A stretch of 64,000 nt of DNA, from the NCBI GenBank assembly GCA_013115135.1, contig JABANP010000094.1, positions 84,802 to 148,801 on the forward strand. The letters are read 5' to 3'. The notes below the pieces were generated by a model. The model saw only the letters and a program-made list of their open reading frames with translations, was not told the DNA's origin and ran no database searches. The stretch comes from Perkinsus olseni. Taxonomy: Eukaryota; Perkinsozoa; Perkinsida; Perkinsidae. This document shows positions 515-22,576 of the stretch, piece by piece. The position numbers and the translations under genes were made by a program. Positions within the stretch are counted from its first letter, which is position 1, and every line of letters starts with the position of its first letter.

Positions 515-600
<86 letters not shown>

Positions 601-616
601 CCACAACAACAACACC

Positions 617-706
<90 letters not shown>

Positions 707-2795: not shown

Positions 2796-5700
2796 ATGCC
2801 CTCCTCATCAGTATCCCGTTCTCGCTCAGCCTCGGGGTCCTCTCGATCGCCCCGAGGTGGTGGCAACAACGATGGAGATGCTGATCGTGCCCGGAGTATG
2901 TCCCGATCCTCCTACTCGAGTCGTTCGCGCTCTCGTAGAGGAGACAGTAGGGGTCGGAGCAACAGCAGGTCGGGTGGCCGCAGGGGGCGTTCCAGGTAGG
3001 GCCGCTACCTTCCTCCCCTCGGACACCGTCAACTTCAGGTCTCGCTCCTATCGGGGTCATAGGCGTTCAGCTGACCCAAGACGTAACGAAGAGGAGATCG
3101 TCAGGCTGCGTGATGGCAGCATCGGTCGTACCCCCTCTCCCTCGGTCGACAAGAAGCGGGCTGATGGTTACGATTACGAGCAAATGGAGGTCCTCAGAAT
3201 TTCTCGCTAGTCGGGTCATTTTATTCTCGCCCTCAGGTTTCTAACGCGGACGCTGCATTCGTGCTCGGTCGCCAAGGCCGTACCAAACAGAAGCTGGCCA
3301 AGGTCAGCCGAGCTGATATCGAGTTGAGGGAGAAGGTCCAGGGGGACAAGGCCGCTGGTGATGTGATTGAGATCGGCGGTACCCCGGACGTCAGAAGGAG
3401 AGCTATCAAGTACATCAAATGCGTTATAGCGCAGAGAACAGGGCCAGTTATGGTTGACGAAGAGGTGAATGGACCAAAGGGGTCAGGAGAAGGTCGAGTT
3501 GGTGCTATCAGGCTGACGATGACGACGATCTGACGATCCTGAAGGTCCCTCGGGAGGCTGCCGGCTTCGTGACGGGCGCCGGTGGGTCCTTCTTGAGGGC
3601 TGTCGAGGAGGAGTGGAGTACTATTATGTTCTTTGCTGACTTTAATGCTACTAACAAGGACAAGACGGTGAGCTCACCGGAGAGGGTTCGACGTTTAGTA
3701 TTCGACGCGCTTCTTTTCAGAGGGAGTTTGAGACTTTGGCCATTTTCGGTGCGAAGAGGTCTCGAGAGGGGGCCATGTTGAAGGTGAGCAGAAGTTGTCT
3801 TATCGATTAATTCCCGAAGTCCAAGGGTGGAGTACTTATTCCAGTGATTTCCCTGGGCAACAGTTCGGGGAGCTGCTTGCCGGTGTTTTGGAAGGGATGC
3901 CTGGTTTCCCGTTCCGGGCTTCACCCGCAATTTAGTGGTTTCCTTCTGATGCCTGTTCTTGACTCTCTCCGCGCCTCCTTTTTGGCTTTTTCCTCCTCCT
4001 ATCGCCCTCCTCAGTCGAGGTCTTCAGGTTATGTCGGCCGTCGAGACCAAGGTGCCTGGCCACTTTACCAACGATATTGAACTCACTGAATGCCATGACG
4101 AGGGCGAAGGCATGGACATCATCAGACTTGAGGTGACCTTCTAGAGGGCATTCGGTTTTTGAGAACTTTCCTTTACTCAGGACGATGAGATTTCGTACGC
4201 CCTTGGCAAGAAGGGTGGTACTAGGAAGAAGATCGCGGCCTCGAGCGGAGCGGTGGTCGAATATGTTGGCAATTACGTTCATATTTACGGTACTTTGGTG
4301 GAGAGGCAGAAGGCTAAGGAGTACATCGACTGGCTCTTCGCTCAACTGAAGGGACCGGTCTTTGTTGATGCTACTGGAAGGGACGACTGCACTATTGTGG
4401 ATGTCCCGAGGGAATGTGTGGGATATATTACTGGGTAAAAATGCAGGGTGTGGGATTCGAACCGGGGACCTCTTCGTCGTAGAAGTATCGTCGACTACCG
4501 TTGTGATTATTTGTTATTTCTCCAGACTAGTACGGGCGATCATCTGAACAACAATCACTTTCATTGAGCCTCCTCGTCGGCGTCCTCATCATCGTCTTGG
4601 CGAGCGTGGTGGACCGCGACGAGAATTTCGAGCATAATTAGAGGCCTCCGCACGCCACCCCCGTCCACCCTTTGAGGACGACGTTTCCATCATCATATTG
4701 AACACAGCCTAGTTCCACCGCCTCCGCGACGATTCATCTACAAGAGCAAAATTGGCATCACCATTATCATCGAGTAGAAATGCCCTCACTGGGATTCGAA
4801 CCCTATACCTCTCGGCCACTACGTCCTGAGCTACTACGACTCCTACTAGAAGGTGGCCATGGACGTCCTCATCGTCTTCGTCGTCGACACAGGTATAAAC
4901 GAGAGACGCTTGGCCGTATTGAAGAGGAATGGGGATGCCTTATGTTCTTCATGGATAAGGCTAAGGATAAGAGAGACAAGGCAGCTCTGAAGGATGCCTC
5001 AGGTATTAGCCAATCGGAAGGTCGTCGGTTCAACTCCTGGCACGTTCACTTTTTAGGCACTGAGAAACTTACCATATTCGGAGCCCAGAGGAGCCGTCGT
5101 GGTGCCCTTCTGAAGGTCCGCCCACCACAACCAGCTCAAGCGTTGACTCGGTTCGCTCTCTCAGGTTATGTCCTCGGTTGAAACCAAGAATCCCGGATGG
5201 TTCACTGATGGCTGCACAGAGAAACGCCATAAGGATGTCAAGGGCTTCGCTACTGATAGGTGAGAAATGTTGATGGTGGTCCATTCATCAGCTGCTTTTG
5301 CGGCAGGATGTATTTGTCCTCTGACGACCTCTCCTATGCTTTGGGTAAGCGAGGGACTACCAGGAAGAAGCTGGCCGCGGCGTCGGGGTGCATACTGGAG
5401 TATGTTGGTCAATGGTGCTTCATGGCTGGTACCGAGCCCCAACGAGAACGGTGCCGCAAGTACCTTAAGTGGCTGACAGCACAGAGACACGGACCTGTCA
5501 GTCTGGGCAGCAGAGACTTGAGGTGGGCTGCCTCGTCGTGGGGGTTGCTGTGGTAGATGCTGGTCTTTCAGGGGGAGAGATGATTGGGATAGGGTAGAGG
5601 TGAAGAGAGAGCTGCGTTCGCAGCTGGCTGGCAATCGTGGACAGGAGCTGAGACGTGTCGAGGAGGACACTAGCACCTTCTGTTTCATGGCGTATAATGA

Positions 5701-6161
5701 GGATAAGAGTGACGAGAGGCTATTGGTGTTCGGCTACAGTCAGGCTAACAGAGAGAAGGCAATCCGCCAGGTAAGTATCTTAGGTCGAACCTTGCTTCTT
5801 ATAGAATGGGTTGTCTTTGTTGCAGATCGAAGATCTTCTGCGGCAGTTCGAGTACGGCAGAGGAGGTTATGGTAGGGGTTACGATGATGATTATTATGGC
5901 CGTTCTCGCGGCGGGTACAACGATTACGGTGGATCATCGTACTATGGTCGTGGTGGCGGTGGTGGTGATAGCTACTACGGAAGGGGCGGCGGGGACAGCT
6001 ACTACGAAGGGCGTCGAGGAGGCGACTGGTGGGGAAGCTCAAGCAGCTCAAGAGATCGTAGAGATAGTTATTACAGTGGCGGCGGTCGAGGGGGGAATCG
6101 GAGGTCGCGATCGGCTTCCTATGGCGACTACAGGGAGAGTAGGAAGAGAGACTACTATTAA
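2796..6161 (+). CDS. Multi-KH RNA-binding protein with RS N-terminus and Gly/Tyr-rich C-terminus
   Basis: About 13 exons. Exon 1 (2796-2995) is an RS domain (SRSRSASGSSRSPRGGG and similar). Further exons at about 3039-3189, 3237-3464, 3512-3667, 3721-3783, 4028-4132, 4181-4434, 4893-5002, 5057-5115, 5165-5259, 5307-5500 and 5572-5770 encode repeated KH units with GxxG-type loops: LGRQGRTKQKL, GAGGSFLRAV, LGKKGGTRKKI, LGKRGTTRKKL and AGNRGQELRRV. Conserved EEEWSTIMFF and EEEWGCLMFF strands mark repeated halves of one ancestral module. The last exon (5826-6161) is rich in Gly, Tyr and Arg, as in RGG/YG tails. KH plus RS plus RGG implies mRNA binding, perhaps splicing or mRNP assembly (inference). 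Frames join cleanly at nearly all GT-AG junctions; the junction near 5500-5572 is not settled. Two introns carry tRNA-like elements. Confidence 0.8.
3811..3937 (+). mobile_element. Diverged MITE-like copy inside an intron of the multi-KH gene
   Basis: This lies within intron 3784-4027. It resembles the elements at 15086-15331 and 48835-49086: it starts with ATTAATTCCCGAAGTCCAAG, continues with CCCTGGGCAACAGTTCGGG and ends with CTGGTTTCCCGTTC and TTCACCCGCAATT. It is shorter and its right terminal repeat is missing, so it is an old, deleted copy. Confidence 0.6.
4435..4892 (-). repeat. Intron with two tRNA-like elements in reverse orientation
   Basis: This 458-nt intron of the multi-KH gene joins a codon in GYITG to YKRETLGRIEEEWG. 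It starts GTAAAAATGC and then has GGGATTCGAACCGGGG. A second copy at about 4774-4860 starts GTAGAAATGC and then GGGATTCGAACCC. Both read on the minus strand as a T-arm GGTTCGAATCC or GGTTCGAATCCC, a short acceptor-like segment, then GCATTTTTAC or GCATTTCTAC. The reverse of the T-rich tail of the first copy is exactly the intron donor. The second copy also has a possible A-box region (TAGCTCAGGACG on the minus strand). Confidence 0.65.
5003..5056 (+). repeat. 54-nt intron made from a tRNA-like 3' end
   Basis: This intron splits GAC GCC TCA G and GC ACT GAG in the multi-KH gene, so the spliced frame is kept (DASGTEKLTIFGAQ). Its body carries GTCGGTTCAACTCCTGGC, a T-arm-like sequence, followed by CACGTTCACTTTTTAG. 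The distance from the end of GGTTCAACTCC to the end of AG is 19 nt, the same as in the three other introns of this type. Confidence 0.7.
5775..5796 (+). repeat. TATCTTAGGTCGA intronic motif, copy in multi-KH gene
   Basis: The last intron of the multi-KH gene (5771-5825) opens GTAAGTATCTTAGGTCGAAC and then CTTGCT. The same word recurs in introns of other genes in this window and in some intergenic places. Confidence 0.6.
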
Positions 6162-7080
6162 ATGGAGCGTTAGGTAGCAGTTGTCGCACTCAACGTTGGG
6201 TAGAAGACGATGGTCATCGTGCTGGACTTACCAGCAAGGAAACTATTTCTTTCACTTTGCTCTGCGTCGAGTTCTAGTCTGTTAATAGTAGAGTAGGAAT
6301 GGACTATCACCTATGCTGTGGGTAGTTGGTATGATGATGACGGATGATCGCAGCTTTCCTTTCCGCCGTGTTGACGCTGAAGAGGAACACCGGCGGCTTC
6401 GAAGGTAGTATCGGTTGTGACGTCACTCGGTATTGCGTCGTGATTTCAACGACTATTCGAGAATTTCAGTAGAGGTTCACAGTAGCACGGCGCTACTAGC
6501 GCCCTTCTCACCCCTCGCACGCCCTGTCTTCGAGTTAGCTGCTCGGTTGCTCGGTGGGCGAAATTATGTCGTCCATGTCCATGATTTTGAAGTATGGGTA
6601 ACAGCTGCCCTCAGCTGGCTGCCACGTTGCCAAGTAGAGTAACTCAACCGCTGTTGCAGGTGTTATCGGTGGACCCTCTCGTTGAGAGCGATTCCTCCGG
6701 GCTATAGGGTACCTAGTCGTATCTGGCTACCAGGAGAGCATTCTGGTCTCTCGAACCACTTGTTGGTCGCTGAAAGTATTGCCTGTCTTGCTAACCAGAA
6801 TTACGTGACATTATCGACGAGGGACGCACCGTCAGGGGTTATTCATCGACGATGATCAGGAGTGTGCTCTCCGCAACCTTTTTTATCGCGATAGGAGGTC
6901 TGCCGATGTAGGTTCCAAGCATATTGATATATCCAATATCAATAGTATGAATATTAGGCCTTCCTGCTTGTTGCATATTTGGTCGTTCAAATTATGGAAA
7001 TTGCTTGTTAGTCGTTCCTGTACTGAGCTCTCATTGTAGAGGGAAAGCAGCCTGCTTTCAGCAGGCAATTTCCTGGCGCG
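6162..7080. other. Intergenic stretch, no gene seen
   Basis: The bases after the multi-KH stop hold only short open frames without recognisable domains. An AT-rich section near 6915-6975 has short inverted repeats (TTGATATATCCAATATCAA). I see no RNA gene or clear repeat. Confidence 0.4.
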
Positions 7081-7308
7081 TGACGATTCTCTTGACACAA
7101 TGCGCGTGTCACCAACGCTACTAAAATGGGCTCGTTCGGTGTCCCAGACATTTTCAACTTCTCGTTTCCTTTGGGTTAGAGTGATTCAGTGGCCGGTGAC
7201 GATTCTCTTGACACAATGCGCGTGTCACCAACGCTACTAAAATGGGCTCGTTCGTTGTGTCCCAGACATTTTCAACTTCTCGTTTCCTTTGGGTTAGAGT
7301 TATTCAGT
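7081..7308 (+). repeat. Tandem duplication, period about 116 bp, upstream of thiamine-binding gene
   Basis: Bases 7081-7190 and 7197-7308 are almost identical, each beginning TGACGATTCTCTTGACACAA and ending AGAGTGATTCAGT or AGAGTTATTCAGT. They differ by a few substitutions and one 2-base indel. The second unit ends about 60 bases before the preferred start codon of the next gene, so the duplication doubles its upstream or 5' untranslated region. Confidence 0.85.
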
Positions 7309-7371
7309 TTCGGGAGGTTGAATGGAGTTTTGAAGCTTAAAGTGTTTTCAACAGAGAGAAAGTTAAGACTT

Positions 7372-8087
7372 ATGTCTGCATCGTCATCAACCGTTGCTGG
7401 CCGCGTTGTTCTCCCCACAGTGTTGAATCTTGTGGCGCATAACACCCCAGCAGCCTCCCTTATCGGAGTTGCTCCTAGCTTCATGCGTCATTATTCTACT
7501 AGTGAAGGAACGGCACCGAAGCCTTGGGGAGATAAAGGCAATGAATGGGTGAGTGAAGCCTGGGAGTTTAGGCACTGTTGCTAGTTAAACTTAAACGGTT
7601 TCACGCCGGTAGCGTTCGTAGCTGTCCTAGTGTTGCTCATGGTCGTCGTTCTGGTAGGTACTAGCTGATGTTTGCATAGTACCTCTGGGGGTTGGTACCA
7701 GTGTATCGAAGTATGTAAGTGAAGTTGAAAAAGTGCTGAGGTCAGTCATTGCCGCTTTCAGGAGTTGTTATGATTTTTATTGTGACAGGAACTACCCAGG
7801 AGTGTCTACGACACTTCACGGTTACGGTACGAACATCGAAGGTCAATGGTCTGATGTTATTGGAGCTGTTAAGTTAGCTCACGAAGTGCTACACGAGATG
7901 GGTGGGAGTTGCGAGGCTTTGTGTGTCCCGTCAGCCTGCTAGTGCTGCTGCTTTAGGTTGCCCTCGTGTTAACTCCAATATGAGGTTTGGTACGCGGATT
8001 GATAAGCATCAGACGCTGAAGGACAAAGTTGATAAAGTTGAGAACATCATTGCTGCTGGCTCTGAGAAAGAAGGAGAAAAGGCGTGA
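7372..8087 (+). CDS. Thiamine-binding protein, MTH1187/UPF0045 family, with N-terminal leader
   Basis: Four exons. The first (7372 to about 7549) encodes a leader rich in Ser, Val, Arg and small residues (RRxx absent, but MRHYSTSEG is typical of mitochondrial presequence ends). The next encode VPLGVGTSVSKYVSEVEKVL, NYPGVSTTLHGYGTNIEGQW, VIGAVKLAHEVLHEMG and VNSNMRFGTRIDKHQTLKDK, ending at 8087. The SVSKYV, GTNIEG, AHE and RxDK motifs define the MTH1187/YkoF-like ferredoxin-fold family, small proteins that bind thiamine or related ligands in bacteria and archaea. Introns at about 7735-7790 and 7900-7960 are canonical. The first intron gives the right frame only if one G at GAATGGGTGAGT is shared or missing. 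A start at 7189 is also open, but lies inside the duplicated upstream repeat. Confidence 0.75.
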
Positions 8088-9050
8088 AGTGGACTGTTTA
8101 TGATGATTGTTATTCACAATTCTTTGGTCTCCGATGGTGTTGAGTTTATCAGTAGCGAACTTGTGATAATTCAACACGGTGTGAGAGTTAGCCGGAGTTG
8201 AAGGAGGTGAGTTTCAGAAATGGCCGTCATCAGCGAAGAGTCGAGTCCCACTGAGATGGACTCGTTGGGAGAGGATTCGGAATCCGAGTGTGTGTGTGAG
8301 TTTTAAGTCCAACGCCGAGAACCGGCTTAGTCAGAGTCTGACTGTTAGGCTAGCACCGATGCATCTTGTTTCAAGAGGGATGAGTTCACTAAACTCAGTT
8401 TAGTCAAGTTTGTTGAGCACAGAAAGTAGCACCCGGGCAGAAATTAGGAATGATCTCATTTGTAAGTTTACCAATGTCCGTAGTTTCTATCCTGATTTCA
8501 CCCGAGAGTTTGTGTTGTAGCGTCAAACTTGAATGCGTATTGTCAATCTTGGGTGTTAAATGTCATTCTTGCGTGGAATACCGTCAATTTTGAATGGCAC
8601 AAAATATGCCTGGTGCGCGGTCGCGGGGAGGAGCCTTGCAAGAAGAGCGCAGCATGGACGTGGACTCCGCTGCGGGGTCCCCGCGTGGAGGAGAGAGTGA
8701 GTGACCGCGGGTGGCGACGCCGGAATTCTCGAAATTGAGAGAGAGGGAATTCACGTCCATCTCTGAACCCAACATTACAGTCGTTAATACCAATACTTCT
8801 ATATAGCCATCTATAGCTACTCACGTACACTAGTCATAGCGGAGACACAGCAGACCGGAGAGTTAGTGACGTAACTGCTTGTAACAACTACTTGTGATTA
8901 GAACGAACTCAGACACTGCGTGGCCGCTATGGATACGTTGAAACTGTTGGATACGTCGGGCGAAGATACTGATCTTGCGCCCTCGTCGTTCCTTGGTTCG
9001 CGTCAACCACGGTGACCGCGTACTGTCAAAGTTGAGCTCGGCAGCGTCAA
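8088..9050. other. Intergenic stretch with one dispersed-repeat copy
   Basis: A short open stretch at 8220-8290 (MAVISEESSPTEMDSLGEDS) could be a first exon, but nothing downstream extends it. A dispersed repeat lies at 8287-8330. The rest holds no gene that I can support. Confidence 0.35.
8287..8330 (+). repeat. Dispersed repeat, TTATAGTCCARCGC family, copy 1
   Basis: Reads GTGTGAGTTTTAAGTCCAAC and then GCCGAGAACCGGCTTAGTCAG. Related copies are at 29041-29130, 31606-31665, 32823-32872 and 41291-41390, with weaker echoes of CAACGCCGAGA near 1250 and 1469. Confidence 0.55.
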
Positions 9051-9095
9051 TCTTGGTCGCAGGTTCGAATCCCAGGTGATTTTTTTAAGTTTCAC
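9050..9095 (+). repeat. tRNA-like 3' end with T-run
   Basis: GGTCGCAGGTTCGAATCCCA followed by GGTGATTTTTTTAAG. This has the T-arm, short acceptor-like segment and T-run of the tRNA-like family seen in introns, but here in intergenic DNA. No full cloverleaf is evident upstream, so I do not call a tRNA gene. Confidence 0.5.
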
Positions 9096-9738
9096 GGTTT
9101 CATCGTAAAACGGTTGCTGACCCATCCCAAGCAATGTGTATACGTATCAGGTACCCACCAAAAAAATTCCAGCCCCTAACTTGCTTTTCTGTAAAAGTTA
9201 TCCCTGCACAACCGTTTCCGGTCTTTAGATGTCTGGTACTGTAGGGCAGGTGAGCAATTTATGTGATATGGTATACTTGGCAGAACGACATAAGGGGCAC
9301 ATCACGGGGTGAAATTTTCACCGTGAAAAAAGGTTAAGACTCCCAGCCTGAGGCGGTAGAAGCATTGCTTCGAGCGTTTACGGTGCCCGGTAGGTACCCC
9401 GTTCGTTCGTGGTCTCTGCAAGACACTCCTGGCCTAGTGCCAATAAGGTGTCCTAATACCTTGAGTCTCACACTCGAACTCCCTTATAGTTTCCATTCGA
9501 CCCTTCAGATGAGCGCGAACCGCAAGGTCTCCTCTATAATCAGCAGGGCTGATTGAGCATCCCAGCCTCACCGCTCGATCAAGAGTAACCGCTAACCATC
9601 GGTTCAACTATCATTGCAGCCTCCGCAACATCGGAAGTTATCAAGGCGATTTGACAGAAAAGTCCGATCAACCACCGAGGATTGGTTTCGTTCATGAAGA
9701 CGGTTCTTAACCAAGCCTTGGTCGTGGCCTTCAAGGCT

Positions 9739-9785
9739 AAGATTCTGTGGCTAAGCCTTGGTCCAAGGCCTCGCCACAGAATCTT
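9739..9785. repeat. 47-nt palindrome centred on one base
   Basis: Outer arms of 13 nt (AAGATTCTGTGGC and its complement) and inner arms of 7 nt (GCCTTGG/CCAAGGC) pair around a single T at 9762. Only three positions on each side mismatch. It lies in the intergenic stretch between the thiamine-binding gene and cathepsin B, which otherwise holds no gene I can support. Confidence 0.8.
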
Positions 9786-10392
9786 GTACGTGCTCTCACG
9801 CTGTCTCGACTTAGGCAGATCCGAGTCAAGCTAGTCTGTTGGCATGTGTGACAGCAAAGAGCAGCAGAGCAGTCAACCTGCGACTCGCAGGCTGCGAGAC
9901 AATCGGTCGTCAACCATGCCCTAAGCCTTAAGGCTTCGCAGAATCCGCTTAGCGCGCGCCTGCAAGTGTCTATTTCGATAGGCGAAAGGGAGCGAGGCTC
10001 CATGGGCTATAAATGGACGGCCAAACGGTGGAGACTCGCGCTCGGTGTAGCTCTCGGAGCCAAACTAAGGCAGATATCTTCGAAATCCGGGCTCTCCCCA
10101 AATCGTATGATACGATTCGTATCCTCCCATCAAACTCACGCTAGCGTCGCTGTCTTCGCGTGCAGCAGGGCTCCATGGGGAACCCCGGTGCATGGCCTGA
10201 CAGAGTTCACGGGATAACAATGTTATCATAACATCAAGGTGAGGAGGAGAGAGGTCAGTTTTGACAGCCTGCTGCTACGAGGTTCGGTGGCAGCCGGCTG
10301 CCAAGGATCGACACATTCGGTGACCGCATAATGTAGTGAAGACTCTTCAGAAGAGTGTGACACAGTCATCGTGACCACTTTAGTCGACAGCA

Positions 10393-12172
10393 ATGGTTCG
10401 TTACCTATTCGCCATTAGCATCGGCTGGTTCCTCTGCGGTACTTCAGTTTCCCCTATAAGGAACCTCAGAAGCACCTTCGATGACCTCAAGGCTCAAAAA
10501 GGTGCGCCAAGCTTCATTCTGTGGCTGATCTACCCTTCGAGGCTTCAGGGTTGGTGTACACTCCCGAGGAAGAAGCTCAGCACCTCGCTCGCTTCGAGGA
10601 GGACTTGAAGGCACAGGCCGAGTTCATCTCGACAGAAGATGTGGCCGAGCTATACGACGAGACCAGACCAGCTATTATGCAGAGCTTCGTTGATGAGATC
10701 AACTCCAAGCAGAAGACGTGGACTGCATCCATCGAGCAAGGAAGATTCAAGAGTAACTCTGTTGGAGCTCCTGACCGTAACCTCTCGCCAAGATGCTCAG
10801 CGAGTCTCTCTCAGCTTTCAGCCTGCATGACGCGAAGAGGTTATGTGGGACGTTACTCGAGGCCGCGAGTGGACTCACTAAGAAGGTCTATGCCCCAGAG
10901 GAGTTGAAGGACCTCCCTACCGACTTTGACGCACGCAGTGGATTCCCCAAGTGCTCGGGTGTTATCGGCCACATCAGGTAGGGAACTATCAGGACCGGGT
11001 GTGTGCTACCTTTATCGAGGGTACCCCGCTTTCAGAGACCAATCGGCCTGCGGCAGCTGTTGGGCCTTCGGCCCCACTGAGGCCTTCAACGATCGTCTGT
11101 GTATCAAATCGGATGGGAATTACACAGCGCTACTCTCGGCTGGCGAGATGAATGCCTGCGCACCGTAAGACAGCCTAATTATTAGGCCGAGGCCAAACCG
11201 AGGGAGCAAGATCCCAGCTATTAGGCCTTAATAGCTGGGATCTTCCTCCCTCTGTTTTTGACGATGTATTCCTCCTAAGGTCCTTAGGCTGCGAGGGCGG
11301 GTGCGGGCGTGGCGGTGGTTGCATGACGCAGGGATCGCAACTGGTGAGTATAGTTTCCCCCTTGCTGACAGCCAGGTCTTAACCTAGCCCTACACAGCGA
11401 CACATCACACGGTCAAGCCGTGAATCCTCACTGTCCTAGTTCCTGGGCTACTCGATGGGCAGTTGTCCCTCTTCTCAGGCGGAGATTACGTTGCTAAGAG
11501 AGAGATGACTAGAGCTGATGGGTGCTGGCCGTACGACTTCCGCCCGTGCGCTCATTATGAAAAAAGCACAAAATATGCAGCATGCCAGGAGGTGAGTGGA
11601 AGAAGGCATTGCTGGGTCGATAATATTTGTCAAGCTTAGGCCAGATACAGTACACCCGTGTGTGTGCGACAATGCCACAATGCGAGGTATCCTATCAGTC
11701 TTAAAGAGTAAGAGAGTCGCTCTATCAGGGACTCGCCCAGATAGATGATAATAGAGCGACTCCCGGGGGACATATGATGATCGTCGGTCTCAGAGATCGT
11801 CATTTTATGGTGGAGTCGTCCCCGTATCAATACTCGAGTGTTGACGACGCCGAGAAAGCCATTGCAACTGATGGGCCGGTGAAGAGAGATCTATCTTCGT
11901 CTGGATTTGAGGTCTATCAGGTGTCCGCGGTCATCGTCATTTACGAAGATTTCCTCGCCTACAAGTCCGGCGTCTACAAGAAGAACGCTTCTGAGTTTGG
12001 CATCGGTCTACATGCTGTGAAGATTATCGGATGGGGCGAGGAAAACGGGGAGCACTACTGGCTAGTTGCCAACTCCTGGAATGAGGACTGGGGTGACCGT
12101 GGGCTCTGCAAGATTGCTTTCGGGCAATGTGGGATAGAAAATCAGCTGCTTGGCGGCACCCCCAAGCTGTGA
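10393..12172 (+). CDS. Cathepsin B-like cysteine protease (C1A)
   Basis: A multi-exon papain-family protease. The start at 10393 gives a signal peptide (MVRYLFAISIGWFLCGTSV). The propeptide has SFVDEINSKQKTWTASIEQG, typical of cathepsin B. Mature start is near LPTDFDARSGFPKC. The catalytic Cys is in QSACGSCWAFG (about 11040), the CEGG motif is at about 11292, the catalytic His in LHAVKIIGWG and the Asn in NSWNEDWG. Introns are short: 10491-10546, about 10780-10819, 10978-11038, about 11166-11279, 11342-11435, one after 11590, and a 43-nt one at 11879-11921 that restores GPVSAVIVIYEDF. The occluding-loop region reads GCWPYDFRPCAHYEKS, with one His where cathepsin B usually has two, so the dipeptidase activity may be weaker (inference). 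Expected location is lysosome-like or secreted. Confidence 0.85.
11200..11252. repeat. 53-nt near-perfect palindrome in a cathepsin B intron
   Basis: Arms pair around a single C at 11226, with a mismatch at 11207/11245 and one G-T at 11224/11228. The core arm is AAGATCCCAGCTATTA. It sits inside the intron between the NACAP exon and the LGCEGG exon. A smaller one (CCTAAT T ATTAGG) is just upstream at about 11174-11186. Confidence 0.85.
11714..11762. repeat. Inverted repeat, 12-nt arms, in cathepsin B
   Basis: GAGTCGCTCTAT at 11714-11725 and its complement at 11751-11762 flank 25 bases. It lies in or next to the intron before the exon that encodes SSPYQYSSVDDAEKAI. Its symmetry centre also falls on a base rather than between two. 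Confidence 0.6.
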
Positions 12173-13650: not shown

Positions 13651-13654
13651 ACGG

Positions 13655-13850: not shown

Positions 13851-14094
13851 GAAGCCGCACTCCTAAAAGGTACAACAGTATGTGCTATGGTAGCTACCGT
13901 AGTGTCACTGCTCTTAACATAACAATAGTCGCATCAACGACAGCGACAGCACGTCACGATCGAGAACGATTGCAATAACATCATGCTTATCATCTAACCC
14001 TCTCCCAAGGAAATATTCACCCACGAAAAGAAGAGCAGCCTGACGAGGTTGACAAATATGAACACCACCGCCGGATTTGTGATAGTAGCGCTTC

Positions 14095-14990
14095 TCAGGC
14101 AAGATCCATGGAAAGCCAGTCTTCAGTGAGAGCCGTCAGGGTCACGCCGTGATACTGGGCGCACAAATCCTTGAATTTCGTACCGTACTCTTTCTTGATG
14201 GTGTCGAGCACAGCCGAGCAGACCTTCGGTATCAAGTCTAACACTCGGTCATCAGCAGACGTCGATTTCTCCTTCGGTTGCCCAATCAGGGATGACCCCG
14301 AGCTTCGGTACCTGGCCACATTTCTACCCTTAGCGGCCCAGAACACACTCTTTCTGTCCGCCCTGAATGCCGCGTCATTCAGTTTGGAGAGAGGAACCCA
14401 ACTGCTGTCGTTGACCGGCACTGTGAATCGACGGTTGAGCACGTCGTCGTAGTGAACCGTCATTCCATGCGTGAATCAGAAACGCGAGAAGACACATCGT
14501 AAGAACGACTTCTCCTCCCCGTTAGCGCCGGACCTTTGAGTGAAGTGAACAAGATATTCAGTCTCCGGACATTCGATGAAGCTAGCCCGAACAGTGGTCT
14601 CTGCAGCGGAGAGGTGCAATTGGCGACTTCTATGATGATACTGGCACTCGATCGCCCTCGCTTCATTAGGAAAAGTAGGAGTTCGACCATGATAGTTGAG
14701 GGTAGTCCTATGAAGAAATCGCCAAGCTATTTTGGAGGGTACACCGGGGGTGAGGGCGAACGCCGTCTCAGAGACCAGATGGTGCTGATGAGTCGATGAT
14801 CGGGGAAGAGGATAACCCATCAGCCTTACATCAGCTGGAGGGCTAAAGTCGACCTCACTGACAGTTCTCTTCTTGTAGGGCGTGAAATAACCTAAGAGGC
14901 TCCTCGCGTGGCCGAAGGGTAGGACAGCAGCGATATCTCCTGGTCTTCGGGTCTCGGCCCGAGACCCGAAGACCAGCAGACATCGCCATG
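14095..14990 (-). CDS. Putative secreted protein, family shared with 0.8-2.0 kb
   Basis: I do not recognise the family. Read on the minus strand, an upstream block near 14940-14830 encodes AAVLPFGHARSLLGYFTPYK and TVSEVDFSPPADVR. A middle block to 14476 runs on in another frame. The last block (14463-14095) encodes MTVHYDDVLNRRFTVPVNDS, SSWVPLSKLNDAAFRADRKS, VCSAVLDTIKKEYGTKF and YHGVTLTALTEDW. The last block and FSPPADVR match the copy at 788-1982. Splice sites joining the blocks are not certain. The likely leader overlaps a 37-nt palindrome at 14940-14976, which disturbs it, so this copy may be damaged too. Confidence 0.45.
14940..14976. repeat. 37-nt perfect palindrome centred on one base
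   Basis: CTGGTCTTCGGGTCTCGG, one C at 14958, then the exact complement of that 18-nt arm. Pairing continues patchily outward (three of four next pairs). It lies in the N-terminal region of the secreted-protein gene on the minus strand. Confidence 0.9.
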
Positions 14991-15085
14991 ACCTATAACC
15001 CTATAACCGTCGTCGTAGCACTTAGCGCACGCCCTCGTAATCGATTATGGCAGGCTTTTGCGTTGAGCACCATCGGGGTAATTCC

Positions 15086-15331
15086 CAAAATCCAAGGGAA
15101 AGGTACAAAATCCAAGGAGGCACTTTCGGGGATCTTCTTGCCCACGGTAACAATGCGGGTTTCTGGTCGCCCTGGGTGACAGTTCCGGGATCGGGTTGCC
15201 CTGTCGGGTTTCGGGAGGGGTTTCTGGTTTCCCGTTCTTGCCTTCACCCGCAGTTCAGGTTTTTTTTCTGTTGATTTTGCCTCCCTGCCGCACGCGCTTC
15301 CTTGGATTTTGTACCTTTCCCTTGGATTTTG
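15086..15331 (+). mobile_element. MITE-like element with 32-bp perfect terminal inverted repeats
   Basis: The left end (CAAAATCCAAGGGAAAGGTA followed by CAAAATCCAAGG, 15086-15117) is the exact reverse complement of the right end (15300-15331). Each end is a doubled CAAAATCCAAGG. The inside has GGTTTCTGGTCGCCCTGGGT and CCGGGATCGGGTTGCCCTGT, also found in the copy at 48835-49086. About 246 bases and no coding capacity. It ends about 75 bases before the DUF4954 start codon. No target duplication is clear. Confidence 0.8.
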
Positions 15332-15404
15332 TACTTCACCCCCACCATCGTCATTATCAGATTCATGACCCGACTGCTCCCTCAGCCGATTGTTTGCCAT
15401 AACT

Positions 15405-18400
15405 ATGTCCGCCTTGCCGAGAACCAGAGCAGCTTCCTTCAGCGGTCACCACACTCCTGCTGATTTCGTGTCAAAATCTGTTCGCTCGTCGCCCTTCATA
15501 GCAGCCTTGCGAGAAGCCAACGCCCCTCGGACAGTCAGACCCGTCACTGCGGAAGAGGTAAAGACGGGACTACTACCAAAGGGACTAACCGTATGCTATA
15601 CTCAGGTTGAGGCCTTGGAGGCAGCTGGGTGTACTGCTGACGACTGGGCTAATGTGTGGGCGATAGGACAGCGTCCCCTAGGAGTTAAGGCCCTCATCAA
15701 GGGATGTAGTTTCCAAGGTCGTGTGGAGATAGCAGCAGTGGAGGGCTCTAAGGTGGTCATCACTGGTCGGGAGGAGGCCTGGCAGGTGTCGATTTAGGTC
15801 ACTCTTGACGGACGCCGACAGCTCGGATGTGGTATTTTTAATACTGTCTTTGAAGATGTTGTGATAGAGGAAGGCACTCTGGTTAAGGACTGCGGCCTGG
15901 TTGCCAATACCATCGTTCGGAAAGGTATCTTTGTGTCACTCGTGCCGATTGCAGAAGAGGTTGTCTCTAGGGGCGGCCCTTATACGATGTGGAGTAGTAG
16001 AAGGATCCTCGCAGCCTGACTGCACCTACGCCAACGGCCATACCCTTCCCTTGGCCGAGGAGACCGGCAGCAGAGACACTGAGCAGTTCGCTGAGCTATC
16101 GATCGAGATAGCTGCCAAGGTAATCCCGTCACAGTACAGGGTGACGAGAAGATACTCCTCAGGTGGCCTCTAGTCGAGGGTTGGCTCCCGCCTACCAAAA
16201 GGCGGTGTCAGAGTACACGGCTGCGGTCGAAGCAGCGGGGAAGGGGAAAACGATCGTGGATGAGAACGCAGTGGTAGGCGATGGTCTTCTGCACAGATCC
16301 GGCGGGACGCTTTTGTTAGGTTCTATCGTGCTCGTCTGTGAAGGGCAGCTACATAGGTCGAAGCGCGCGAGTTGTGAACTCAAAGATTCGCGATAGTGCT
16401 TTGCTCGAGGGCAACCACGTCGAGGACTGCAGTCTGACTACTGCCATTCTTCAGAAAGGTAGTCCGGGGGTGATTGAGGTAGTGTTGAGGTCTGGTCGTA
16501 TCAGAGGCGGGTGTGGAGTCCTTTGGAGTAGTAGAAGGCGCGACCCTCTGCCCTACAGTACATGTCGAGCGACACGGCAAGGTCTTTGATTCTATCGTCG
16601 GTCCCTGCTCGGGGATTGCTGAGGTGAGTTTGTGAAGGAGCGAGATTTTGTACGTTGATTCTGGTCTGGTCAGGGTGAGGTGACGGCCTCCTTAGTCGGA
16701 CCCTTCGTTGGCTTCCACCACCAAGCCTTGCTCATCGCGTGCTTCTGGCCAGCGGGTCGGGGTAATATCGGCTACGGTGCTAATGTGGGCTCTAACCACA
16801 CTGGAAGGCGCCGGACCAGGAGAACTGTCCGGGGGAGGGGACGTTCTTTGGGCTGGCTACCAACATCAAGTACCCCTGTAATTTGGTGGACTCACCCTAC
16901 TCTCTGATCGCCACTGGAATCAGCTGCTTACCCCAGGCCATAGGGGTAGGCGGGAGGGATTGACGGCGGAGCGAAGCAAATTTTCTTTTTTTAGTTGCCG
17001 TTCAGTCTCGTTAACGAGTCTACTGAGTGCATCGCTGGTCTGTCGCCGGCTATTAATGAAGTGACGCCTGGGGTGGATGTTGAGCGATAATATGTACTCG
17101 CTGTATCGGAATGAAGCCAAGTTCGAATCCCGGCAAGGGAATCTTCCCAAGGACGGCGTGATGTGAGATTAACCTTCGCTGTTAGCGTTTGAGGATCCTT
17201 AGGAGTAGGTACCAATACTCTGTCTTCCGGCCGGACATAATGGACAGGGTTGTGAAGGCCAGAGATATTCTGAAGGCTGCGGATCCGAAGGATACCAAGC
17301 TGAGGGACGCCAAGGGACAACCGGTGTTTACAGGTCAGTTTGTGGGTTGCTGGAGTGAGGGGAGAGCGTATCTTTCTCGGGCTAGTAAACACTATATATT
17401 CGGTAAGATCTCATTGGTATCTTAGCTACTCGTGTCAACCTAGGGTGTGTTGGGTATGGTATCTTGTATCATCCATCAGATAAGCAAATCCGGATTCTCG
17501 GTAAGAACTGGATGCACGAGTCGGCGAGACTTACCGCCGTCAAGACCTACACCACCTTCCTTCAATGGTGAGGATAGATTTTGGCGCCCCTCTGAAGATT
17601 AGGAGTTGCGGAAAATTAGGTATGCCATAAGAGGTTTGTGGAGGAGGCTGTCGTCGGATGAGAGGAAGATGAGCACTGGACGACCAGAAGATGCTGCCAA
17701 GATGGTAAGCCTGTGATTGCCTAGGGTCGACCTAAGATACTTCAAGTTTATTGATGATATTATACGGAAATGTACCGATGATTGTAGTTAGATTATTTTT
17801 CATGAGAAGATATGATTCTTAATCGATATATTCCACAGTGATGCTTGAGTCCAATGAAGACCGGCATAGATGCTCCTCAGGTGTCGAGCACTTTGGCCTA
17901 CCTCAAGTCCCCTCCAGCCATCGACCTAACTCCACTCTATGAGAACCTCACAGCCTGTGCCTTCCGCGACGAGGAGTCCCAGGCGGAACTCAGAGACCTC
18001 CAGTGGGCTCATGAATGCAAGGTGGGCAATTACGAATGGGTGGTTGGCTGTCGTGGCGAGGGTGCGTTGGGCCAGAGAATTCAAGAGTAACTAGATTGTG
18101 AACGCTCGACGTTCTCACTGGTCATTGTTATTTAGTGAGGACGAGCGGAAGAAATGGCATCGGGATCTAAGGTCGAACCTTGCTATAAATAGATGAAAAG
18201 ATATTCAAGAATGATTACTAGCTAAGGGAAGTTATATAGTAAAATACCAATCATCACTTGAATAATGGATCTTCCATACCGCTGAGGCGCTCACAGTCTC
18301 AATGGCCGCAATCTCGGCGCTACAATAATGCTGTAGAAAAGCAATTTCCCTTGTTCGCTACAGATTCTTCGGTCGGAGTGCCAGGACCCTCTCAACATCG

Positions 18401-18858
18401 CGCCCCTCCTCCGGTGGTACGCGGACACCAACCTTGCCATAGCCCAGGTACGAGGGCGTATCTTTTGGCCGTTTCGTAATATCTTTTTCTCGTCAGTCTT
18501 GTGTAACTGCGAAGTCTCGAGATGATGCTAGAGGTGCTCGTATCATCGGCAAGAGCTATACTGACGCGCATGAGGCTGCCGCTGATAACAAGGTGAGAAT
18601 AGTCTTTACGACTCGGGCGACTGGATAGTGTTCTGCTAATAGTTGACGAGAGCCTTTTCCTCATGATATGTGGGAAATTTGGTATGAAATTCGCAAGAAA
18701 ATCAGATAACATTTTCGTGTACCAATCGAGGGTGTTAGGTCGCCGTTATGAACGGTCAGTATTATCTTCGCTATTATCAGGTCTGCCAGAAGGCGATTGC
18801 TGATGCTAAGCGGGTGAAGGAGGATATTGAAGTCTTCCTAGCTACGTCCAAGCTGTAG
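15405..18858 (+). CDS. DUF4954 family protein (left-handed beta-helix, acyltransferase-like)
   Basis: A long multi-exon gene. Exon 1 (15405 to about 15786) has the N-terminal signature LEAAGCTADDWANVWAIGQR and IKGCSFQGRVEIAAVEGSKV. Later exons encode FNTVFEDVVIEEGTLVKDCG, TYANGHTLPLAEETGSRD, VGPFVGFHHQALLIACFWPA, GRGNIGYGANVGSNHTG, FFGLATNIKYPCNLVDSPYS, LVNESTECIAGLSPAINEV, NMYSLYRNEAKFESRQG, YQYSVFRPDIMDR, LGKNWMHESARLTAVKTY, LRWYADTNLAIAQ and, near the end, SRDDARGARIIGKSYTDAHE. These match DUF4954, a hexapeptide-repeat family of unproven function common in Bacteroidetes and found in some protists. Two one-base breaks occur at G runs (about 16806 and about 17070). Introns carry two copies of the TATCTTAGGTCGA motif. 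Confidence 0.7.
17725..17740 (-). repeat. TATCTTAGGTCGA motif, reverse copy in DUF4954 intron
   Basis: GGGTCGACCTAAGATAC lies 20 bases inside an intron that opens GTAAGCCTGTG. A forward copy (ATCTAAGGTCGAACCTTGCT) is at 18165-18184 in a later intron of the same gene. Confidence 0.55.
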
Positions 18859-19248
18859 GTCACCAGTGAGACAGCGCACGCGCCTTCCCGAGTGATTTTT
18901 TTGTCTTTGCGAATATTATCGTTATTTTCGCAAGAAAGGGTTCCTTGCTTTACTAGTTGTATTCTCACCAGTGTACAGGATTGCTTTTCTCTGAGTCTTC
19001 TGTTCTGAGTCGAAGCTTGTTGCGCAGGTGGGCGTGTGGTCTTTTAGGTGGGAAATGCTTTGTGGCCAACTCTGACCAGATCTACGCGAGGTTGTTTTTT
19101 AATTCTGTCTTCGAGCACTTTGATGCTTTTACTGCTGTTGTTTGTCTCCTTGAAATCAGCAGTAGTTGTCCTTGGGGGATTTGAACCCGGGTGAATCGAT
19201 TGCTGCAGCCCATTCATCTGGTGGTGTTGTATACTACTACTACGTCCA

Positions 19249-19998
19249 ATGTCCGATACCGAGACCCCTACTGAGACCCCCTCCACGACCCTCTACGTCT
19301 CCCCCATTGCCGACCCTTTGATGGGAGGCAAGTTGAACGCTCGGGCTATGAAGCTTGTTAAAGAAGGGTAAGGGGAGCTCACTGACGCTCTCGAGTGATT
19401 GTAGTCCGAGGCCCGCTTTAGTTTGTTCGGCTTTCCTCGACTTTATATGTTTCCTTTGAGTGGTTCCCGAGAATCGTAGCGTTATTCCCTGACTGTGACT
19501 CTTTTCGACTGATTTTGTCTTATTTTTCAGCGGCGACCTCCAAGAACCTCCGTCGTGGCGTTCCTGAGGTTTTGAAGGCCATCAGGAAAGGGTGAGGGGA
19601 GGGGTTGCTGTGATTTGGTGGAAAGATGGTATTGATCAGGTCAGAAGGGTATGGTATTGCTGGCTGCTGATGTCTATCCTGTTGATGTTATCGCTCATGT
19701 GCCGGCTTACTGTGAGAAGAAGGGTATTCCCTACGCCTACGTACCATCAAGACAGGCTTTGGGTAATCGAAAGGTCCCCGGTTCGATCCCTGGATGGGGT
19801 ATTATTCAGGTACTGCTTGCCAGACTAAAAGGGCTGCTTCGGTGGTATTGGTAACCGAGCCTAAGGAGGACTCTACTTACACCAAGACCTACGAGCAGGT
19901 GAGCCATATAATCGACCCTGAATTTTGACCGCGCGCCACGAAATTATACCACCGCTCAGGTCCACAAGGGCGTATTGGCCATCAACCCCTACCTGTAA
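19249..19998 (+). CDS. NHP2: NHP2/L7Ae-family snoRNP protein, copy 1
   Basis: The spliced product is about 150 residues: [20 protein letters not shown] at the start, [73 protein letters not shown] and VHKGVLAINPYL. The L7Ae/NHP2 fold is clear; NHP2 is the H/ACA snoRNP subunit that binds kink-turn RNA for pseudouridylation in the nucleolus. The [14 protein letters not shown] pattern favours NHP2 over SNU13 or L30. There are four introns, the third (19763-19809) tRNA-like. At the first two donors this copy has an extra G (GAAGGGTAAG, AAAGGGTGAG), so its frame closes only if one G is spurious; copy 2 closes cleanly. A tandem duplicate follows 425 bases later. Confidence 0.8.
19763..19809 (+). 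repeat. 47-nt tRNA-like intron in NHP2 copy 1
   Basis: The intron divides LG and TACQTKR; without it the L7Ae frame is continuous. It opens GTAATCGAAAGGTCCCC, then GGTTCGATCCC, then 19 bases ending TATTATTCAG. The T-arm core starts exactly 17 bases from the donor, as in the copies at 20814 and 21445. Confidence 0.85.
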
Positions 19999-20423
19999 GG
20001 ATTCTCCCTTCCCCTCTCACCCAACGTCATATCCCATCCATTACCAGCAATAGTATTCACCACTTAGACGATGGTTTCTATTACTCGACCGTCGTAGTTG
20101 AGTTCATCTCCTTTCCCTTGGGGCGCACGGATAAGGCTGCTGGGCTTCTGAGTTGGAGGTAGTTCGCAGCGCTCATCGTTGTTATCCTGGTAACGGACCT
20201 ATACTGGAATCTACCTTATCAACATTACTATTGTCATGAATCAAATTTTTTCTCGTGACATAACATTGTTAAAATTACATTTGCACCAGCTGTCTCCTTA
20301 GTCCTCGGGCGGCGCAGGGCCGGGCTGTTTTTACCATCACTAGCGTCTCTTATTTTCCCGGCTGGCCCGGTGTATTGTTATAGGTTGGGGAACCATGAGG
20401 CCTTCTAGTGTATTCCGGTGACG

Positions 20424-21037
20424 ATGTCCGATACTGAGACCCCCTCCACGACCCTCTACGTCTCCCCCATCGCCGACCCTTTAATGGGAGGCAAGTTGAA
20501 CGCTCGGGCTATGAAGCTTGTTAAAAAGGGTAAGGGGAGCTCATATCAGTTTTCTGGTCGCATCTTTGTTTTTGTTTAGCTGCCACGTCGAAGAATTTGC
20601 GGAGGGGCGTGCCTGAGGTACTGAAGGCCATCAGAAAAGGTAATTTCAGGTTGACGGGGGTATAATGATGACGGGGGTATCGTCGCTCAGGTCAGAAGGG
20701 TATGGTACTGCTGGCTGCTGATGTCTATCCTGTTGATGTTATCGCTCACGTGCCGGCTTACTGTGAGAAGAAGGGTATTCCCTACGCCTACGTACCATCG
20801 AGACAGGCTTTGGGTAATTAGAAGGTCCCTGGTTCGATCCCTGGATAGGGTGTTATTCAGGTACCGCTTGCCAGACTAAGAGGGCCGCCTCAGTCGTATT
20901 GGTAACCGAGCCTAAGGAGGACTCTACTTACACCAAGACCTACGAGCAGGTGAAATTTCCCACTTCCATACCATCCATCGCCCAATTCGTCCTGTCAGGT
21001 CCACAAGGGCGTCGTCGCCATCAACCCCTACCTCTAA
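20424..21037 (+). CDS. NHP2: NHP2/L7Ae-family snoRNP protein, copy 2
   Basis: A tandem duplicate of the gene at 19249-19998 with the same four intron positions. It lacks a three-residue repeat near the start ([16 protein letters not shown]) and differs at a few other residues (for example [10 protein letters not shown] for KGVLAINPYL). All exon junctions keep frame, with exon 1 ending in GTTAAAAAGG before GTAAGGGG. Intron 1 is much shorter than in copy 1, while intron 3 keeps its length and its tRNA-like sequence. Protein identity near 97 percent suggests a recent duplication or gene conversion. Same predicted role in H/ACA snoRNPs. Confidence 0.85.
20814..20860 (+). repeat. 47-nt tRNA-like intron in NHP2 copy 2
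   Basis: Same place and length as the intron at 19763-19809, with six substitutions. The GGTTCGATCCCTGGAT core is intact, and the acceptor end reads GTTATTCAG. Confidence 0.85.
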
Positions 21038-21090
21038 CGTACCTTCAACAGATAAGTCGGTAAAGTATCCCTCCTTTCCGTTTCCTCACT

Positions 21091-22576
21091 TTGTCGTTTT
21101 GCGTTCATTTTGGTGACCCCCTGGGCGGACTCCTGGCCAGTAGGTTTGCATGGCACTTTAAGATGAGGCACTACAGTCGATCTGACTTTGAATTCGGATC
21201 GCTACTGGGGACCGGCGCCTTTGCACAGGTCGTGCATGTCCGGGATAAAACAGATGGGGAGGAGTACGCTCTGAAGATTCTCGATAAGAAGACACTGGAG
21301 CGGGTAGTAGGGCGGCTAAGGCCCGGCGATGGCGATCGGTTTTCTCGTCAGCTCGATAAAACGGCGCAAGTGCTGAATGAAAGGGATACTCTTATGAAAC
21401 TGAGAGACTGTGATAATATAGTAAAATTGTACTTCACGTTTCAGGTGGGTGGTAAGGCGCAGGTTCGATCCCGGCATGGTGTATTTTTTAGGACCGAACT
21501 TGGCTTTACTTTGCGCTTGAGTACTGTGAAGGGGGCGACCTCGCAGAGGAGATCGGGAGGTGGGGACGAGTCCCCGAGGACCTCGCGAGGTTCTACGCCG
21601 CCGAGATTGTTAATATGCTTGTCCAACTGCGGTCCAAAGGGTTGGCCCATCGCGACCTGAAACCCGATAATATTCTAATAAATAAGGGACACTTGAAACT
21701 GGTAGACTTCGATGTGGCAAAGGTAATAGGGGTATCCCAGGAGGCGTCGTCAGGCCTGTGGGTCCTCAGGCGATCTCACCGAGTCTGGCATATCAGTGTG
21801 AGAAAGGAGCGCTGCCAGTGGGGATGCGAAGTCAGCCTCTACGCAGAGCGATGATGATTCCCAACTACGGCGGATGAACACCTTCGTCGGGACGGCACAG
21901 TATGTGTCGCCAGAGATGCTGAGCGACTCTGCTGTGGCGGGCTTCGCCTCGGACCTCTGGGCGTTGGGGTGTATCGTCTACCAAATGATAGTTGGTTATT
22001 CGCCCTTCCAGTCGGGGTCGGAGGGACAGACATTTCAGATGATACTCGCGAGACAGTACGACATGCCCGATGACGTGTCTGATGCGGCGAGAGATCTTAT
22101 AGGAAAATTACTGGTGCTTGGAGCCAGCGGACAGGCTGGGCTTTGGCAACCTAGGGGAGCTCAAGGCGCATCCCTTCTTCAGTGGCGTTGACTTTGCGAC
22201 TTTACCATTCACCCCGCCGCCCCGAGAGAGCCACCATAATCGAAATCATCAGGAGAACGGCGAGTCGCTGGCTGACGATATGGGCGCTGAGTTTGGCCTG
22301 GCTCCGCATGGTGTCGAGATCTCGGTGGACGAGGATGATGACTGGAGTTATGATTCTGATGAGGATGAGCGAACCCCAATGGTGGGGCAAGTGTTTGGAG
22401 GCCGGGCGCAGCGGATAATGCCGTTCAACTTTGTGGAGGCCGCCAACGCAGCGGTGAAGTCGCCGAGGAGCTCTGGAGGCCAACATGGTGGTACGAGGCC
22501 CGGCAGGCAACAGCAGGAGAGACCTGCTGAGACTACGACTCGGACGTCATGTGAGGAAGACGCTGGTGGCCGTTGA
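21091..22576 (+). CDS. PDK1-like AGC protein kinase
   Basis: Kinase subdomains in order: LLGTGAFAQVVHV (glycine loop), EEYALKILDKK (ATP Lys), NERDTLMKLRDC (alpha C), NIVKLYFTFQ, WLYFALEYCEGGDLAEEI (hinge), HRDLKPDNILI (catalytic loop), KLVDFDVAKV (metal site), MNTFVGTAQYVSPEML (activation and P+1 loop) and LWALGCIVYQMIVGYSPFQS. LYFTFQD, GTAQYVSPE and the KLLVL..RLG end are characteristic of 3-phosphoinositide-dependent kinase 1. The usual DFG is DFD here, so Mg binding may be altered. A 47-nt tRNA-like intron splits FTFQ and DRTWLYF (21445-21491); another follows VAK at 21723. The frame needs one G fewer between LLVL and EPADRLG (about 22122). The C-terminal tail is acidic (SVDEDDDWSYDSDEDE), and no PH domain is seen. 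The start may instead be at 21163. Confidence 0.75.
21445..21491 (+). repeat. 47-nt tRNA-like intron in the PDK1-like kinase
   Basis: Opens GTGGGTGGTAAGGCGCA (17 bases), then GGTTCGATCCC, then 19 bases ending GTATTTTTTAG. It keeps the exact register of the two NHP2 introns although the flanking sequence is unrelated, which makes descent from one inserted element likely. Confidence 0.85.

What the first reader, a model, noticed from the sequence alone, without database searches (positions are those of the whole stretch)
4435..21491. Spliceosomal introns built from the 3' end of a tRNA-like element
Four introns, at 5003-5056, 19763-19809, 20814-20860 and 21445-21491, carry a T-arm core (GGTTCGATCCC or GGTTCAACTCC). 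From the end of this 11-mer to the end of the acceptor AG is exactly 19 nt in all four. In the three 47-nt introns the core also starts 17 nt from the donor. The bodies otherwise differ and the host genes are unrelated (multi-KH, NHP2, PDK1-like). Removing each intron restores a conserved protein block, so they are real introns. The T-rich tail that would end a Pol III tRNA or SINE transcript serves as pyrimidine tract and AG. In the fifth intron (4435-4892) the element is reversed and the complement of its tail (GTAAAAATGC) serves as donor. I infer a tRNA/SINE-derived introner that makes introns in either orientation. Free copies at about 2518 and 9050 could be related insertions outside genes.
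Basis: partly seen in the sequence, partly recalled or inferred. Interest (0 to 1): 0.88.

Follow-up and report, generated by a model that had tools for sequence, protein, structure and literature searches.

The report
Introns made from tRNA-like halves
In the clam parasite Perkinsus olseni, thousands of short repeats that look like the rear half of a transfer RNA gene are scattered through the genome, and many of them appear to be spliced out as complete introns, which points to an unusual source of new introns.

Summary
The window is Perkinsus olseni. The 11-mer core occurs 5,367 times genome-wide, 507 for a reversed control.

Of 94 sampled copies (4 tRNA genes dropped), 24 lie sense in predicted introns, 26 antisense in introns, 21 outside genes, 23 in predicted exons. 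16 of 24 sense and 7 of 26 antisense introns are <=71 nt, against 4% expected if a 35-nt unit had landed in existing introns. In short introns the unit is nearly the whole intron: introner-like, in both orientations.

The 19-nt spacing to AG: 0 of 20 sense introns outside the window. The complete tRNA SINE: no A box or 5' acceptor strand found above control, no T stem kept overall. The unit resembles a tRNA 3' half (variable loop, B box, C-A, T run); one subfamily of 188 copies has a ~30-nt core.

No RNA evidence, no empty site, no copying mechanism shown. Other motifs recur in short introns too.

The parts
5003..5056 (+). 54-nt intron of the multi-KH gene; core GGTTCAACTCC at 5027-5037; its AGGTCGTCGGTTCAACTCC is identical to the same stretch of tRNA-like genes listed
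19763..19809 (+). 47-nt intron of the first NHP2 copy, GTAATCGAAAGGTCCCCGGTTCGATCCC subfamily (188 copies genome-wide at <=3 mismatches)
20814..20860 (+). 47-nt intron of the second, tandem NHP2 copy; 87% identical to the intron of the first copy
21445..21491 (+). 47-nt intron of the PDK1-like kinase gene, core 21462-21472
4435..4892 (+). 458-nt intron of the multi-KH gene whose donor is the complement of the T run of a reversed copy
   Evidence: boundaries read by eye, supported by an internal protein repeat
4440..4471 (-). reversed tRNA-3'-half-like copy at the 5' end of intron 4435-4892 (core 4453-4463)
4776..4811 (-). second reversed copy inside intron 4435-4892 (core 4792-4802); ends taken as 9 nt before and 15 nt after the core
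2523..2558 (+). copy in predicted non-genic DNA (core 2532-2542, followed by CCTTTTT)
9053..9088 (+). copy in predicted non-genic DNA (core 9062-9072, followed by a run of seven T)
19177..19187 (-). core in antisense inside predicted intron 18855-19208
54847..54857 (-). core on the strand opposite a predicted exon; no T run; status unclear

Best explanation
Perkinsus olseni carries several thousand copies of a very short repeat (about 30-45 bp) that has the layout of a tRNA 3' half: AAGGTCCC (variable loop and start of the T arm), the B box GGTTCGATCCC, a variable 7-8 nt stretch, C-A, and a run of T. Copies lie in both orientations, in introns and outside genes. Many make up nearly the whole of a 47-70 nt intron, with GT at or a few bases before the unit's 5' end and AG in or just after its T run; reversed, the complement of the T run gives a GTAAAA-like donor. 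Most likely mechanism (inferred): 5'-truncated Pol III transcripts, ending in their T terminator and drawn from tRNA-like sources of several subfamilies, were copied back into the genome; insertions into exons were tolerated when the unit supplied splice sites, so that each such insertion became a new intron.
For: Abundance: 5,367 cores versus 507 for the reversed pattern. Dispersal: 188 copies of one 28-mer at <=3 mismatches versus 0; BLAST with two host genes gives matches at unrelated loci of 33-53 bases only, all over the unit. T run: >=3 T at offsets 22-25 in 20 of 24 sense-intron, 9 of 26 antisense-intron and 9 of 21 non-genic copies, control offsets 0, 2 and 1, so it belongs to the unit and is not only a pyrimidine tract. 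Whole-intron units: 16 of 24 sense (P 2e-17) and 7 of 26 antisense (P 5e-5) introns are <=71 nt against 4.0% expected for a 35-nt insertion into one of 883 predicted introns; without the window 12 of 20 and 7 of 24. Density of sense cores per Mb: introns <=70 nt 591, non-genic 77, exons 39, in regions chosen for cores. Real introns: of 10 spliced proteins, a Pfam domain above its curated cut-off spans the junction in 6 (kinesin, metallophosphatase, PanB, PDK1-like, choline kinase, NHP2); gapless PDB alignments across the PDK1, PanB and kinesin junctions. Similar introns in unrelated genes: 57 of 512 short introns have a relative at E<=1e-3 versus 5 exon, 0 non-genic and 0 Markov controls, the largest cluster (22) being this family. 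Several subfamilies: upstream columns are linked (mutual information 7.2 versus 3.5 +- 0.2) and 25 of 94 copies match one of 17 tRNA segments at >=10 of 13 positions, shuffled mean 10.8, maximum 19.
Against: No empty site was found: L013 has no second copy in the genome, and all four copies of the gene of L061/L069/L070/L071 have the intron. Genome-wide, AGGT 8-38 nt before the core is only slightly commoner than in the control (785 of 5,367 versus 58 of 507) and for reversed cores it is not commoner (625 of 5,367 versus 75 of 507). The acceptor-side stretch varies even between copies with the same 28-mer, which plain copying of one element does not explain. T-stem pairs 49-65 (36 of 94) and 51-63 (38 of 94) are at or below chance and only 50-64 is above it (55 of 94 versus 47.1 +- 2.9). 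No target-site duplication was evident by eye; it was not tested. 23 of 94 copies lie in predicted exons, some probably missed introns. The gene finder is self-made and made known errors (intron 4435-4892; a tRNA-Asn gene called an intron). No RNA data.
Confidence: 0.6

Rival explanations
1. Functional-signal reading: the B-box word and its T run are kept by selection as a DNA or RNA signal (for instance extra TFIIIC sites without a tRNA gene, or an intronic signal), so unrelated introns came to share it without being copies of a mobile unit.
For: Box-B-like constraint persists when copies are found through other letters: among 34 distinct copies found by TAATCGAAAGGTC, position 60 is C or T in 34 and the invariant B-box positions 53, 55, 56, 58 and 61 are kept in 33 each, while 51 and 63 and the next 7-8 nt vary freely. 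T-stem pairing is not kept overall. Several other short words behave alike in short introns.
Against: A shared 28-mer with up to 3 mismatches at 188 places against 0 is far longer than a binding site needs; some pairs match over 47-48 bases; both orientations are equally common in introns (24 and 26).
Confidence: 0.17
2. Ordinary short transposon copies that landed in existing introns and outside genes and create no introns.
For: About half of the copies lie outside introns (44 of 94) and 19 of 26 antisense intronic copies sit in introns longer than 71 nt.
Against: The length test: 16 of 24 sense introns are <=71 nt against 4% expected. The antisense donors that coincide with the unit's 3' end also fit unit-made introns.
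Confidence: 0.13
3. One reading: a complete tRNA-derived SINE with A and B boxes whose 3' end makes introns.
For: A few copies have an A-box-like stretch upstream (for example window 4802 reversed, L004, L025+7553), and L010 3638-3716 looks by eye like a whole tRNA-like intron.
Against: In 110 copies no upstream enrichment of three A-box/D-arm motifs over controls and no 5' acceptor strand (7 of 110 full pairings versus 6 in control).
Confidence: 0.08
4. Copies spread by reverse splicing of excised introns.
For: Sense copies often have exact GT-AG ends.
Against: Antisense-intron (26 of 94) and non-genic (21 of 94) copies are not expected from it.
Confidence: 0.02

Closest known systems
Introner elements (survey PMC9860276, passages seen; Amoebophrya PMC7789003, passages seen; dinoflagellate work by Roy et al. 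2023 seen only as cited in PMC11453091, the paper itself not held)
   Same: Introns of unrelated genes share sequence and look like copies of a dispersed unit; lengths of 47-70 nt lie within the 30-654 nt family medians given in PMC9860276.
   Different: Here the unit has the layout of a tRNA 3' half with B box and T run, lies in either orientation, and shows no obvious terminal repeats. In PMC9860276 the words SINE, tRNA and Perkinsus do not occur in the held main text.
tRNA-derived SINEs
   Same: B box, tRNA-like 3' part, T run like a Pol III terminator, dispersed copies.
   Different: No A box or 5' tRNA half above control, a unit of about 30-45 bp, and no body or tail seen.
Tailless retropseudogenes of tRNAs and other small RNAs in mammals (PMC5322556, abstract only)
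   Same: Truncated small-RNA copies without an oligo(A) tail, broken at positions that fall in single-stranded regions; here one subfamily starts near the anticodon.
   Different: From recall, the mammalian ones keep the 5' part; here the 3' part with T run is kept, and copies act as introns. Target-site duplications were not shown here.
Dada DNA transposons that insert into tRNA genes of Perkinsus marinus (PMC3706591, passages)
   Same: Same genus, tRNA genes involved.
   Different: They are several-kb transposons inserted inside tRNA genes near the A box, not short tRNA-like units; no link to the unit was found.

Membership tests
Introner element | similar introns in unrelated genes of one genome | tested here: met
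   57 of 512 short introns have relatives versus 5, 0 and 0 in controls; the largest cluster is this family; 188 near copies of one 28-mer
Introner element | unit ends coincide with the splice sites | tested here: inconclusive
   short introns are nearly all unit, but donor and AG distances vary (donor to core 12-33 and core to AG 6-33 in the 16 sense introns <=71 nt)
Introner element | recent gain shown by presence/absence between relatives | not testable with these tools
   no relatives' DNA is held; within the genome no copy without the intron was found for the cases looked at
Introner element | target-site duplication or terminal inverted repeats (present in some families only) | not tested
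   looked at by eye only, none evident
Introner element | segments are spliced from mRNA | tested here: inconclusive
   protein conservation across junctions and deposited NHP2 proteins; no RNA-seq here
tRNA-derived SINE | A box and B box of a type 2 Pol III promoter | tested here: not met
   B box yes; A box not above control in 110 copies
tRNA-derived SINE | tRNA-related 5' region | tested here: not met
   no 5' acceptor strand or D arm; similarity stops near position 34-35 in one subfamily
tRNA-derived SINE | tail shared with a partner LINE or poly(A) | not tested
   no partner LINE was looked for
tRNA gene | full cloverleaf | tested here: not met
   ARAGORN finds none in the window and 4 in the 51 further loci behind the counts, all 4 dropped from the 94; Rfam finds no tRNA in the window even at E<=10
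Tailless tRNA retropseudogene | truncation at a single-stranded loop, no A tail | tested here: inconclusive
   sharp 5' edge near the anticodon in one subfamily; T run, no A tail; flanking duplications not tested

The most novel reading that the evidence does not exclude
A cellular RNA is a recurrent source of spliceosomal introns: 3' halves of several tRNA species (cut in or near the anticodon, still carrying the Pol III T terminator) were reverse-transcribed and inserted across the P. olseni genome. The T run doubles as pyrimidine tract in one orientation and as donor in the other, so each insertion arrives as a ready-made intron.
Probability: 0.28. Interest if true: 0.88.

Novelty: new variant of a known kind. 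Interest (0 to 1): 0.72.

Why it matters
Where new introns come from is an old question. In the introner survey whose passages were seen here (PMC9860276), DNA transposons are put forward as the main source. A Pol III/tRNA-like source would be a different one, in a lineage next to the intron-rich dinoflagellates, and the tiny unit shows which letters suffice for an intron in either orientation. It is directly testable: several Perkinsus species and P. olseni strains have been sequenced (recalled; P. marinus proteins appear).

Tried and rejected
Fixed 19-nt spacing as a family rule: rejected (0 of 20 sense introns outside the window).

Complete tRNA SINE: box A/D-arm and acceptor-strand searches gave nothing above control.

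Genome-wide AGGT donor counts as a test of intron use: uninformative, with a slight excess in sense and none in antisense.

Whole-genome tRNA family search: only 63 of 7,618 first-look candidates were scored, so it gives no count.

Empty-site search with DNA queries: L013 has only its own match; L071 and L066 found gene copies and isolated units but no copy without the intron (the extra loci were not cut out).

T-stem as a conserved RNA structure: not maintained overall.

Iterated profile search: converged on AGGTCCCgGGTTCGATCCCcGG..ccGgCAT; E-values are for the 343-kb sample only. The box-B tally line printed was shifted by one position by my script, so I used its column counts.

Literature: ten searches in the open-access library only. 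No paper found there describes tRNA-half introns or introners in Perkinsus; subscription papers and their supplements were not searched.
Full report
What the window is. The window is contig C934, 84802-148801, of a 61.48-Mb genome in 968 contigs. A protein search with NHP2 returns a Perkinsus olseni protein on a contig whose length, 148,801 bases, equals the window's last base; lineage.

The observation. The core GGTTCRANYCC occurs 12 times in the window, where about 0.5 are expected from the genome-wide reversed control (507 in 61.48 Mb). Two of them belong to tandem NHP2 copies and are 87% identical, so the independent cases are three. The fifth intron, 4435-4892, is supported by an internal repeat of the multi-KH protein; its donor is the complement of a reversed copy's T run, and a second reversed copy lies further inside.

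Are they introns? The splice of NHP2 agrees with two deposited P. olseni proteins and one P. marinus protein. Ten spliced proteins, from element introns of the window and of other loci, were scanned against Pfam. A domain above its curated cut-off spans the junction in 6 of 10 (kinesin L006, metallophosphatase L013, PanB L059, PDK1-like, choline kinase L026 sense intron, NHP2). In 3 (TPP enzyme L025, response regulator L014, choline kinase L026 antisense intron) the spanning match is below the cut-off. In 1 (zinc-ribbon protein L023) the domain lies beyond the junction. Alignments to solved PDK1, PanB and kinesin chains run through the junction without a gap.

How common. Genome-wide, 5,367 cores versus 507 reversed. 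About 430 core hits also carry TAGCNNAG at tRNA spacing (426 versus 2 in the control), mostly real tRNA genes in the listed part. I trained a small gene finder on the fetched DNA (883 predicted introns, median 57 nt) and classified the cores. After dropping 4 ARAGORN tRNA genes and cores too near the end of a stretch, 94 remain: 24 sense in introns, 26 antisense in introns, 21 outside genes, 9 sense and 14 antisense in predicted exons. Loci outside the window were picked for having cores, not for intron status; most lie on the first contigs of the assembly. If half of the roughly 4,000-4,800 non-tRNA, above-chance cores are intronic, some 2,000 introns carry one; this is a rough estimate.

Unit or insertion into introns? 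If a unit of about 35 nt (the conserved block from -9 to +25 around the core) had landed in existing introns, 4.0% of the results would be <=71 nt. Observed: 16 of 24 sense and 7 of 26 antisense; without the window 12 of 20 and 7 of 24. Sense cores are also denser in introns <=70 nt (591 per Mb) than in non-genic DNA (77) or exons (39) of the sampled regions. So in short introns the unit is the intron. This argues for intron gain but does not show it: no copy without the intron was found.

What the unit is. Consensus AAGGTCCCgGGTTCGATCCCcGG..ccGgCATTTT: the variable loop, T arm, end of the acceptor strand and T run of a tRNA. The T run is present outside sense introns too (9 of 21 non-genic and 9 of 26 antisense copies, against 1 and 2 at control offsets), so it belongs to the unit. 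Nothing like a 5' tRNA half is found: three A-box/D-arm motifs and a pairing 5' acceptor strand are no commoner upstream than in controls (110 copies). The T-stem pairs 49-65 and 51-63 are at or below chance; 50-64 is above it. One subfamily, GTAATCGAAAGGTCCCNGGTTCGATCCC, has 188 copies at <=3 mismatches against 0. Its flanks lose similarity right before position 35 and right after the core, while C/G at position 65 and the T run persist (the 34 distinct copies are a mixture of low-mismatch copies and others, out of 68 exact 13-mers in the genome). BLAST with two host genes gives 9 matches away from the gene copies, 33-53 bases long, all over the unit.

Sources. Columns upstream of the core are linked far beyond shuffling, and 25 of 94 copies match one of 17 tRNA segments at >=10 of 13 variable positions against a shuffled mean of 10.8 (maximum 19 in 300 shuffles). 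The segments are an incomplete set; Ser, His, Asn and Arg were named by ARAGORN, the other labels are mine. The intron at 5003-5056 has the letters AGGTCGTCGGTTCAACTCC in common with the genome's Thr-like genes. This suggests several tRNA-like sources; it does not prove them.

Mechanism. Shown: sequence family, both orientations, position in introns, protein continuity. Inferred: that the copies come from Pol III transcripts, that they were inserted by reverse transcription, and that insertion made the intron. A serious alternative is selection for a B-box signal, because B-box letters are kept where neighbours drift; the 28-mer and 47-48-base matches speak against it.

Wider picture. The all-against-all comparison of short introns shows other shared words (GCGGAGCGAAGC: 1,749 genome-wide versus 6; GTATCTTAGGTCGAAGC at <=2 mismatches: 1,400 versus 9). 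In all, 57 of 512 introns <=80 nt have a relative at E<=1e-3, against 5 of 512 exon, 0 of 512 non-genic and 0 of 512 Markov sequences. The tRNA-like unit is thus one of several introner-like families in this genome; their counts by motif use words chosen after seeing these introns.

Known work. Introners are a known kind; passages of PMC9860276, PMC7789003, PMC11453091 and PMC3706591 and the abstract of PMC5322556 were seen. In ten searches of the open-access library I found no account of tRNA-half introns, and none of introners in Perkinsus. Verdict: a new variant of a known kind, real in the sequence, with the last steps (splicing, gain, copying) still to be shown.

Noticed in passing
short introns throughout the sampled genome; for example window 16946-16994 and 5771-5825; L030:6743-6797, L030:7153-7210: Other dispersed short words recur in ~48-nt introns of unrelated genes, in both orientations: GCGGAGCGAAGC (1,749 versus 6 control), GTATCTTAGGTCGAAGC at <=2 mismatches (1,400 versus 9), and also TTTCGTGGCGCGTGACG, CTGACACCTCTAGCTG and ATCTTGC repeats.
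   Followed up: partly
window 19243-21040: Tandem NHP2 gene copies, the first apparently lacking an exon stretch (KLVKEGPSGKGQKGM), as in the deposited protein P0003.
   Followed up: no
window 500-715: Long CAA repeat.
   Followed up: no
window 7078-7310: A stretch of about 100 bp (TGACGATTCTCTTGACACAATGCGCG...) occurs twice in tandem.
   Followed up: no
window 11194-11258: A near-perfect inverted repeat that gives chance-level Rfam hits on both strands.
   Followed up: no
L026:5030-5211: A predicted intron made of tandem 36-bp repeats carrying the CTGCGCCACGAAATT word.
   Followed up: no
G000:C41:104418-117846: Five places about 3,350 bases apart carry the same reversed core with AGGTGAG donor, which looks like a tandem gene array with the element intron.
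   Followed up: no
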